A stretch of 64,000 nt of DNA from an uncultured Roseovarius sp. Lineage in GTDB: Bacteria; Pseudomonadota; Alphaproteobacteria; Rhodobacterales; Rhodobacteraceae. Location: assembly GCF_947259555.1 (NCBI RefSeq), contig NZ_CAMYMD010000109.1, positions 1 to 64,000 on the forward strand, in the 5' to 3' direction. Below, piece by piece: positions 54,451 through 56,739 of the stretch; position 1 is the first letter of the stretch; each line of letters opens with the position of its first letter. The translations under genes and the position numbers were made by a program. The notes beneath the pieces were generated by a model. It worked only from the letters and a program-made list of their open reading frames with translations. It did not search any database and was not told where the DNA came from.

Positions 54451-55667
54451 TGGACGGCTCCAAATTCGAAGACGCGCTCACAGGCGAGCAGAAAATCCGC
54501 AATTTCAACCTCAACTTCGGCCCGCAACACCCTGCGGCGCATGGGGTTTTGCGTCTGGTGTTGGAGTTGGACGGCGAGTTGGTCGAGCGTTGCGACCCGC
54601 ATATCGGCCTGCTGCATCGCGGCACCGAAAAGCTGATGGAGAGCCGCACCTACCTGCAGAACCTGCCCTATTTCGACCGCCTCGATTACGTCGCGCCGAT
54701 GAACCAGGAACATGCCTGGTGTCTGGCCATCGAAAAGCTGACCGGCGTCGAGGTGCCGCGCCGCGCGAGCCTCATCCGGGTGCTCTATTCCGAAATCGGT
54801 CGTATTTTGAACCACCTGCTGAACGTCACCACGCAGGCGATGGATGTCGGCGCGCTCACGCCGCCGCTCTGGGGGTTTGAAGAGCGCGAAAAGCTGATGG
54901 TGTTCTACGAGCGGGCCTGTGGCGCGCGGCTCCATGCGGCGTATTTCCGGCCCGGCGGCGTGCATCAGGATCTGCCGCCGGAATTGCTCGACGATATCGA
55001 GGAGTGGGCCAAGGACTTTCCACGTGTTCTCGACGATATCGACGGCATGCTGACAGAGAACCGGATCTTCAAGCAGCGCAATGCCGATATCGGTGTGGTC
55101 AGCCAGCAAGAGGCGCTTGACTGGGGCTTTAGCGGCGTGATGGTGCGCGGCTCTGGCATGGCGTGGGATCTGCGCCGCGCGCAGCCTTATGAATGCTATG
55201 ACGAGTTCGACTTCCTCGTGCCGGTGGGCAAGAATGGCGACTGTTATGACCGCTACCTCGTGCGGATGGAGGAGATGCGCCAGAGCCTTCGGATCGTGCA
55301 TCAGGCCATCGAAAAGCTGCGTGCCCCCGAGGGGCAAGGCGATATCCTCTCACGGGGCAAGGTGACGCCGCCCAAACGGGGCGAGATGAAGCGCTCGATG
55401 GAGGCGCTCATTCATCACTTCAAGCTGTATACCGAAGGGTTCCACGTGCCCGAGGGCGAGGTCTATTGCGCGGTTGAGGCCCCCAAGGGCGAATTCGGTG
55501 TGTATCTGGTGGCCGATGGCACCAACCGGCCCTACCGTGCCAAGCTGCGCGCGCCGGGCTTTCTGCATTTGCAGGCGATGGACCATATCTCCAAGGGGCA
55601 CCAACTGGCCGATATCGCGGCGATCATCGGCACGATGGATGTCGTCTTTGGGGAGATCGACCGGTAA
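54450..55667 (+). CDS. nuoD: NADH-quinone oxidoreductase subunit D
   Basis: A 405-residue 49 kDa-type subunit lining the quinone site. [32 protein letters not shown] [14 protein letters not shown], and the C-terminal [20 protein letters not shown] and [13 protein letters not shown] are intact, including the His and Tyr near the quinone pocket. Start overlaps the upstream stop (TAATG). Confidence 0.97.
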
Positions 55668-56461
55668 TGAACGCGGATTGGTCCGGTATTACGCTCTCGC
55701 GAGCAGGAGGCTGGCTGGCTGGTGTCCTGTCATCCGTCTTTTTGGCCGGTGCCGCGCAGGCCGAACCCGTTCCGTCAGAGCGGATCGAGACCTTTGTCGG
55801 CGTAATGGCCGAGCATGGCTGCCGGATGTCGCCGTTTGAGGCCGACCGCGTGATGCCGGAGGCGGGTTTCGTCGACAAGGCTGAGACCAAGGCGATCACC
55901 GAACAGTTGATAACCGAGGAGCGCGCGCGCATTCTTGACGGGCAACTCGTGGTCTTTGGCGGGGCCTGCGGTGGCAGGCTCGATTATTCCGGGCGCGAGC
56001 GGTTCTTTGCGGCGATTGCCGACAACAACTGTGTGATGACCATTGAAGAGGCCAAGTTGCTTTTGCCCCGCGTCGGTGTCGAGATGACCGAGGTGCAACT
56101 CTTGATGGACAAGATGCTGCGCATGTCTGAAATTCGCCTGTCTTCGGATGAAAAGGCCGTGTTTCTGGAAGAAAGCCTGTGCGAGCGTTTCAAGGGATTG
56201 TCCGCGAGCATGATGAACAGCGCGCCCGAGGTCTTGCAAGCATCGCGGACCCCTGCTCAATTGCGTATCGACTTCATTGCCTACATGGCCGGGGCGGGCT
56301 GCCGTCTGAGCCGGGCCGAGGCTGATGTTCAACTGCCTGCTGCGGGGTTCACGACCAAGGAACTACGCCCGGTGATCGCGGCGATGCTGTCGCGCGGTGA
56401 GGCGCAGATGGATGTCGAGGAGGACAGCCTGTCACTTTCCGAGGAGTTGTGTTCCCAATGA
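55667..56461 (+). CDS. Secreted three-repeat, six-cysteine protein in the nuo operon
   Basis: A 264-residue protein with a signal peptide (cleavage about residue 32, AQA). The mature part is three repeats of 60-90 residues, each with a Cys pair: C52/C101, C122/C172, C212/C262, spaced 49, 50 and 50 residues. Each repeat has a helix before a GC/NC, an EA motif, LP or MP, then EL/EV helices. The pairs probably form disulfides in the periplasm. I know no family. The start overlaps the nuoD stop (TAATG). Confidence 0.7.
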   Translation: MNADWSGITLSRAGGWLAGVLSSVFLAGAAQAEPVPSERIETFVGVMAEHGCRMSPFEADRVMPEAGFVDKAETKAITEQLITEERARILDGQLVVFGGACGGRLDYSGRERFFAAIADNNCVMTIEEAKLLLPRVGVEMTEVQLLMDKMLRMSEIRLSSDEKAVFLEESLCERFKGLSASMMNSAPEVLQASRTPAQLRIDFIAYMAGAGCRLSRAEADVQLPAAGFTTKELRPVIAAMLSRGEAQMDVEEDSLSLSEELCSQ

Positions 56462-56739
56462 TGCGAATGAATGTAGTGGCTATGGCCTCTGTTGGCGTGC
56501 TGACCGCCTGCGCCTTGCCGCCAAAGGGGATCAGCGAGCAGGATCTGCTCAACTACGATGCCGCCGTGCAGAGCCTTGGCTGCACTATGGTGACAGAGCC
56601 GGACTATATTGCGGCAGGGTTCCAGACGGGCCTTACGCGGCAAGAATTGCTTGATATAACTGCTTATAAACTGTCCGCGGGCGGGGCCGAACGGCTGCCT
56701 GCCGGGGGCGTGAAACTGACCACAGGAGCCTGTGCCTGA
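56458..56739 (+). CDS. Single-repeat lipoprotein related to the upstream three-repeat protein
   Basis: A 93-residue lipoprotein with lipobox VLTAC (Cys18). The mature part holds one repeat like those of the preceding protein: LGC at C42 and GAC at C92, 50 residues apart, with a matching EL helix between. The start overlaps the upstream stop (ATGA). Other in-frame ATGs at 56461 and 56467 are possible. It precedes nuoE by two bases. Confidence 0.7.

What the first reader, a model, noticed from the sequence alone, without database searches (positions are those of the whole stretch)
55667..56739. New Cys-pair repeat family: a three-repeat secreted protein and one-repeat lipoprotein, both inside the nuo operon
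The secreted protein contains three repeats whose cysteines are at 52/101, 122/172 and 212/262, and the adjacent lipoprotein has one copy with cysteines at 42/92. Spacing is 49, 50, 50 and 50. Each repeat also shares an aromatic-helix-GC start, an EA or acidic stretch and an EL/EV helix. Both genes are translationally coupled to nuoD and precede nuoE. I know no description of this domain. A periplasmic complex I-associated or assembly role is an inference.
Basis: partly seen in the sequence, partly recalled or inferred. Interest (0 to 1): 0.72.

Follow-up and report, generated by a model that had tools for sequence, protein, structure and literature searches.

The report
Exported winged-helix repeats beside complex I
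Two small exported proteins inside a marine bacterium's respiratory complex I gene cluster carry an undescribed cysteine-paired domain that was found in about 130 sampled related genera and, where checked, nearly always at the same spot, so they are probably periplasmic partners of the respiratory chain whose exact job is unknown.

Summary
Gene A (55667-56461) is an exported protein with three copies, and gene B (56458-56739) a lipoprotein with one copy, of a ~66-residue domain with two cysteines 49-50 apart. No Pfam or NCBIfam family covers it. A profile from other organisms scores all four copies at 54-63 bits against at most 9.9 for Cys-fixed shuffles. The family is confined, as sampled, to the window's taxonomic family: 134 of 394 genomes there; outside it, only weak partial hits. 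It is tied to one spot: 84 of 95 loci, and 36 of 40 loci that gave no profile rows, have it between nuoD and nuoE. In 30 profile-negative genomes that gap holds no copy. Predicted models have the winged-helix order of elements, and structure searches list mostly proteins I recognise as winged-helix. The domain is acidic and exported, so DNA binding is unlikely. Against a structural role: presence is patchy on a NuoD tree and no NuoH-N loop length tracks it. Family: new and real. Complex I association: plausible, unproven. Most likely function: periplasmic protein binding.

The parts
55667..56461 (+). Gene A: exported protein, 264 aa, three winged-helix-like Cys-pair repeats; signal peptide by inspection, cleavage probably after Ala32 (AQA|E)
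   Evidence: ORF; DNA; homologues; AlphaFold2 model of residues 37-264
55778..55975 (+). Repeat 1 (Cys52/Cys101)
55985..56188 (+). Repeat 2 (Cys122/Cys172)
56258..56458 (+). Repeat 3 (Cys212/Cys262)
56458..56739 (+). Gene B: lipoprotein (lipobox LTAC; mature Cys at 56509), 93 aa from ATG 56458, one repeat (Cys42/Cys92)
56548..56736 (+). Repeat in gene B
54450..55667 (+). nuoD, immediately upstream; its stop codon overlaps the start of gene A
   Evidence: matches 77-92% identical in the loci
56742..57944 (+). nuoE with a C-terminal extension, immediately downstream

Best explanation
Genes A and B encode exported carriers of one small domain: a winged-helix-type fold (helix-strand-helix-helix-strand-strand) probably stapled by a disulfide between the end of helix 1 and the end of the last strand. 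The domain is a periplasmic protein-binding module, used singly on a lipid anchor (gene B) or in tandem in a soluble protein (gene A; up to ten copies elsewhere). Its fixed, co-translated place between nuoD and nuoE most likely reflects an accessory role on the periplasmic side of complex I or of a partner made with it: assembly, stability or supercomplex contact. Shown: family, repeats, export signals by sequence, gene position, restriction to one bacterial family as sampled, purifying selection. Predicted: fold and disulfide. Inferred: protein binding and the link to complex I.
For: Profile searches. Position: 84 of 95 loci carry nuo genes and 96 of 107 domain proteins lie between nuoD and nuoE on the same strand; 36 of 40 loci from genomes that gave no rows to profile A4. 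Cys pair: 142 of 143 domain matches in the 95 loci have exactly two Cys 45-58 apart, mode 50; the exception is an IclR regulator. Export: 91 of 107 domain proteins pass a strict signal rule (46 Sec-type, 45 lipobox) against 4 of 384 NuoB-F N-termini. Fold; stray profile hits include cytoplasmic HTH regulators. 89 of 90 domains are net negative, mean -5.4. Purifying selection.
Against: Presence is patchy: 26 changes on a NuoD tree of 148 tips (118 positive, 30 negative), shuffled labels 27.5, 110 of 500 shuffles as low or lower. No 30-residue segment of NuoH, J, K, L, M or N differs clearly in length between domain-positive (18-19 usable of 20) and domain-negative (19 usable of 20) genomes; smallest p 0.088, uncorrected. 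The same gap in some negatives holds unrelated small genes, some exported-looking. Some paralogues sit beside pyrG/secG or a two-component system. The Paracoccus denitrificans complex I paper names no periplasmic extra subunit in the passages read; whether that species has the gene was not tested.
Confidence: 0.45

Rival explanations
1. Operon cargo: real exported envelope proteins, expressed with nuo because the nuoD-nuoE gap is an old, tolerated insertion slot, with a periplasmic function unrelated to complex I.
For: Patchy presence; no co-varying NuoH-N loop lengths; unrelated small ORFs in the same gap of negative genomes (exported-looking L184, L190, L201; membrane-type L186); several other small genes in this operon; paralogues elsewhere.
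Against: The domain is found in about a third (134 of 394) to a half (72 of 149) of sampled genomes of the family and, where position was checked, lies outside nuo in only 15 of 135 loci, one of which is not a member.
Confidence: 0.4
2. Periplasmic thiol or redox sensor: the Cys pair switches between dithiol and disulfide.
For: Cys pair in 142 of 143 domain matches.
Against: The two Cys lie about 50 residues apart, no CXXC; the predicted position fits a structural staple. Inference.
Confidence: 0.06
3. Nucleic-acid-binding winged helix.
For: Fold similarity to MarR, IclR, IdeR and SelB.
Against: Exported by sequence and acidic: 89 of 90 domains net negative.
Confidence: 0.02
4. Chance ORFs or chance cysteine spacing.
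For: None beyond the weak pairwise scores of the lipoprotein against R1 and R2.
Against: Shuffle tests, dN/dS, recurrence in over a hundred genomes.
Confidence: 0.01

Closest known systems
Winged-helix fold (MarR, IclR, IdeR, SelB winged helices, tandem winged helices of UFL1/DDRGK1; that these are winged-helix proteins is mostly recalled, some titles say it)
   Same: Order of elements in the predicted models; Foldseek lists (3-repeat: 8b9x E 2e-4; lipoprotein: IdeR E 0.026 TM-by-query 0.57, SelB 0.041/0.60, MarR about 0.1/0.57, IclR-type PcaR about 0.08-0.15/0.57-0.59; the 50 rows shown span 0.36-0.60); tandem use as in SelB and UFL1.
   Different: Exported, acidic, a conserved Cys pair, no family-level sequence match; whole-chain TM for the 3-repeat model is low (0.18-0.26 by query in the 50 rows shown), so only single domains compare.
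Complex I supernumerary subunits of alphaproteobacteria (NDUFS4, NDUFS6, NDUFA12, CI-PIMT; PMC11522691, abstract and passages seen)
   Same: Extra proteins of the same enzyme is the proposed role.
   Different: In the passages seen PIMT sits on the hydrophilic domain and NDUFS4 anchors the N-module; these are exported, and no co-purification is known.
Intermembrane-space Cys-paired subunits of mitochondrial complex I (NDUFS5, NDUFA8, NDUFB7; family features recalled)
   Same: Small disulfide-type proteins on the side equivalent to the periplasm, as an analogy only.
   Different: Twin CX9C helical hairpins (recalled) against Cys about 50 apart in a winged helix; no homology claimed.
DUF5333 (PF17267), exported-looking product of the nuoF-nuoG gap
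   Same: Same operon; found in 61 of 80 sampled genomes of the family over its cut-off; 25 of 27 domain-positive against 36 of 53 domain-negative genomes, Fisher p 0.014, not corrected for kinship.
   Different: Unrelated sequence. In another sample, by BLAST near nuo, 14 of 20 positives against 16 of 19 negatives, so the association is not robust.

Membership tests
Winged-helix fold | Order helix-strand-helix-helix-strand-strand | tested here: met
   AlphaFold2 models, mean pLDDT 80.5 (6 rows) and 83.5 (24 rows). The first strand is only 2-3 residues in each of the four copies.
Winged-helix fold | Best structural matches are winged-helix proteins | tested here: met
   Most of the 50 rows shown in each, by my recognition of the names; 1 match at E<=0.001 for the 3-repeat model, none for the lipoprotein. 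The VIA-align second look was unavailable.
Winged-helix fold | Sequence match to a catalogued winged-helix family | tested here: not met
   90 members against Pfam: single-member hits to several winged-helix models at E 0.008-0.07 and two members to DprA_WH (best 0.047); curated cut-offs are not shown in that table. SelB 1lva E 0.007 in the PDB profile search.
Winged-helix DNA-binding proteins | Cytoplasmic, basic recognition surface | tested here: not met
   Export signals in 91 of 107; 89 of 90 domains net negative. Surface charge itself was not mapped.
Complex I accessory subunit or assembly factor | Gene linkage to nuo | tested here: met
   120 of 135 loci (84 of 95, 36 of 40).
Complex I accessory subunit or assembly factor | Presence wherever related complex I is present | tested here: not met
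   134 of 394 genomes of the family at a capped search; 30 of 30 sampled negatives have nuoD, none has the domain in the D-E gap.
Complex I accessory subunit or assembly factor | Co-purifies with, or is needed for, complex I | not testable with these tools
   Needs experiment.
Twin CX9C (CHCH) proteins | CX9C motif pairs (definition recalled) | tested here: not met
   Exactly two Cys per domain, 45-58 apart in 142 of 143 matches.
Disulfide-bonded domain | Disulfide formed between the two Cys | not testable with these tools
   Model coordinates not exposed; inferred from export and Cys conservation.

The most novel reading that the evidence does not exclude
A lineage-specific periplasmic subunit set of respiratory complex I, built from one to ten disulfide-stapled winged-helix modules, soluble or lipid-anchored: a bacterial analogue, evolved separately, of the Cys-paired subunits that cap the intermembrane-space face of mitochondrial complex I.
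Probability: 0.25. Interest if true: 0.8.

Novelty: new variant of a known kind. Interest (0 to 1): 0.5.

Why it matters
An exported, tandem-repeating winged helix tied to one slot of the complex I operon in about a hundred checked genera is a ready lead to an unknown periplasmic side of a well-studied enzyme. The patchy presence gives natural presence/absence pairs of relatives for testing.

Tried and rejected
Pairwise comparison alone would have left the lipoprotein unproven as a member; profiles settled it. PDB profile hits to TAL effector repeats (E down to 7e-28) were rejected: in the two shown, each is a 15-17-residue stretch of a few bits summed over many repeats; hits to designed proteins (8vl4 E 1.7e-5, 8cwy, 8cws) cover only profile positions 17-45 and were also set aside. 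Five weak hits in other alphaproteobacterial families (E 5e-5 to 9e-4, partial): three share an HTH-like stretch, the one of these scanned (L174) gave only sub-cut-off HTH matches, two look spurious; not counted as members. L159 is an IclR regulator, so the counts 91 of 295 and 134 of 394 contain at least this one false hit (G201); three further genomes reach only E 5e-4 to 8e-4. Search for co-varying loop lengths in NuoH, J, K, L, M, N: negative; NuoA and NuoI not compared. DUF5333 co-occurrence: p 0.014 in one sample, not seen in another. Label changes on the NuoD tree: no better than shuffles, in a positive-rich sample. Lipoprotein +2 residue: 6 Asp of 50 pattern hits; some of these 50 may be the domain's own GC, and the sorting rule is recalled from E. 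coli, so nothing is concluded. A loose hydrophobicity rule for export (105 of 107) was replaced because it also fires on 58 of 79 NuoC. Plasmids: no match for gene A; PHROGs: nothing better than E 0.26. Rows dropped: one search kept 101 of 136 distinct domains after a 60% redundancy cut, plus 4 of the window; I gave 90 of those 105, leaving out 15 divergent ones by eye. The at-least-two-Cys filter removed none, but all profiles were built from Cys-pair sequences, which favours finding such. In one search I left out 7 less complete genomes between G040 and G126, three of them domain-positive.

Full report
What is there. Between nuoD and nuoE, gene A (55667-56461) encodes a 264-residue protein with a signal peptide by inspection and six cysteines at 52/101, 122/172 and 212/262; gene B (ATG 56458, stop 56737-56739) encodes a lipoprotein with lipobox LTAC and one more cysteine pair 50 apart.

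More than chance. R1, R2 and R3 match one another at scores reached by 0 of 1000 shuffles, with or without fixed cysteines. Pairwise, the lipoprotein is weak (12, 119 and 309 of 1000 against R3, R2 and R1). A profile built without any window sequence scores all four at 54.0-63.1 bits; the best Cys-fixed shuffle scores 9.9. In the own genome only these four copies are found. Pairwise dN/dS among the window and five relatives (three named Roseovarius strains, one Roseovarius MAG, one Rhodobacteraceae MAG) is 0.05-0.24 for A and 0.10-0.29 for B.

No known family. Pfam and NCBIfam give nothing near a cut-off for either gene (best E 0.32 and 0.096 for A, none for B). 90 members scanned singly against Pfam give only scattered hits (best E 0.00044 to PspAA for one member; several winged-helix models at E 0.008-0.07). 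PDB by sequence: nothing for gene A better than E 0.2; the profile finds no match that spans the domain.

Distribution (own genome included in each count). Profile A1 (28 rows): 91 of 295 genomes of the window's family, 3 of 289 of the class, all three of the same family. Profile A4 (90 rows): 134 of 394 family, 72 of 149 order, every listed match in the same family, 8 of 289 class (three same family; five weak partial hits outside, rejected), 7 of 229 phylum, all the same family. The family counts are probably low, because at most 15-41 first-look candidates per genome were scored, and include at least one false hit (G201, L159). With the whole gene A as query: 13 of 40 in the genus and 10 of 149 in the family. 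No match on plasmids.

Position. I fetched 95 regions, covering the hit clusters outside the own genome. 84 of 95 carry nuo genes; 96 of 107 domain proteins lie between nuoD and nuoE on the same strand, and 11 lie in loci without nuo, one of which is an IclR regulator and not a member. As a check I took 40 loci, chosen from listed hits without sight of their context, from genomes that gave no rows to A4: 36 between nuoD and nuoE, 4 without nuo. In 30 genomes without a hit, all with nuoD, the gap is 2-534 bases and none holds the domain even at E up to 10; nine gaps exceed 150 bases and some hold unrelated small ORFs.

Anatomy of the family. Among 96 proteins in the gap, 86 have one domain, 4 two, 3 three, and one each four, nine and ten. 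142 of 143 domain matches in the 95 loci have exactly two cysteines, 45-58 apart, mode 50; the exception is the IclR regulator. Under a strict rule 91 of 107 domain proteins have a signal peptide (46) or lipobox (45) against 4 of 384 NuoB-F N-termini, for which every start was tried. 89 of 90 domains are net negative, mean -5.4.

Fold. AlphaFold2 for gene A residues 37-264 on six rows: mean pLDDT 80.5, pTM 0.49, so single repeats are credible and their mutual arrangement is not. Gene B on 24 rows: pLDDT 83.5, pTM 0.69. The elements run helix, short strand (2-3 residues), helix, helix, strand, strand. Foldseek against the PDB lists mostly proteins that I recognise as winged-helix: for gene A 8b9x (UFL1/DDRGK1, E 2e-4), ScpB, cullins, MarR, MukE and SelB; for gene B IdeR, SelB, MarR and IclR types, the best with query TM about 0.57-0.60 but E 0.03-0.16. 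The three-repeat whole-chain TM values are low (0.18-0.26 by query in the rows shown). Stray profile hits include one IclR regulator and three HTH-like proteins. Cys-Cys distances were not measured because coordinates are not exposed.

How it may work. Exported winged helices that are acidic and often tandem or lipid-anchored are most simply protein-binding modules in the periplasm (inference). Because the gene is coupled to nuoD and nuoE and rarely lies elsewhere, an accessory role for complex I is my leading reading at 0.45; operon cargo follows at 0.40. Against the first: presence changes 26 times on a NuoD tree of 148 tips, not fewer than shuffled labels give (mean 27.5); no NuoH, J, K, L, M or N segment length tracks presence; DUF5333 co-occurrence is inconsistent between samples. 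The 2.3-Angstrom Paracoccus complex I paper (PMC11522691, abstract and passages seen) names three mammalian-type extra subunits and a PIMT, and says extended beta-hairpins stabilise the periplasmic side in the absence of NDUFA8 and NDUFS5; it names no exported extra subunit in what I saw. PMC8115037 (passages seen) reports several additional proteins in the preparation, most of them judged likely contaminants. Whether Paracoccus has this gene was not tested.

In print. Searches for nuo operon/Rhodobacter capsulatus/unidentified reading frames, nuoD/nuoE/Rhodobacteraceae/hypothetical protein/lipoprotein, winged helix/periplasmic/disulfide/respiratory complex I, DUF5333/DUF5337, nuo operon/Rhodobacterales, nuo gene cluster/supernumerary/periplasmic, and phrases for periplasmic or secreted winged helix showed, in their listings, no paper about this domain (titles and abstract starts only). 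The library is open-access only.

Noticed in passing
60299-60649, 60759-61178, 63170-63559 (window): Three further exported-looking proteins in the same nuo operon: a lipoprotein (lipobox LAGC) and DUF5333 (PF17267, with a hydrophobic N-terminus) in the nuoF-nuoG gap, and a lipoprotein (LTGC) without Pfam match in the nuoG-nuoH gap.
   Followed up: partly
56742-57944 and 57980-58768 (window): NuoE carries a C-terminal extension that is repeated in the next gene, a membrane-type protein; both end in nearly the same helix-hairpin-helix-like stretch.
   Followed up: no
54244-54450 and 58778-59002 (window): Small membrane-type proteins in the nuoC-nuoD gap (68 aa, Gly-rich start) and the nuoE-nuoF gap (DUF5337, PF17272).
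   Followed up: no
L236, L234, L245 (also L213 near secG): A paralogous single-domain subfamily lies beside pyrG (CTP synthase) and secG in other genera; Pfam checked for L236 only, the others by likeness to it.
   Followed up: partly
L093, also L086: Two-domain paralogues lie beside a histidine kinase and, in L093, a response regulator with a LuxR-type domain (Pfam checked for L093 only).
   Followed up: partly
L160 (G043) and L082 (G245): In two genera the gap holds ten domains: one 782-residue ten-domain protein in G043, and a nine-domain plus a one-domain protein in G245.
   Followed up: partly
L294 6592-8682 (nuoL of the own genome): NuoL has a long His/Glu-rich insertion, roughly residues 490-570 by eye; over own residues 531-560 its length varies between genera (12-32) but not clearly with presence of the domain (p 0.097).
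   Followed up: partly
L184, L190, L201, L186 (nuoD-nuoE gap of domain-negative genomes): Unrelated small genes occupy the same gap, three exported-looking and one membrane-type; the three exported-looking ones have no Pfam match.
   Followed up: partly
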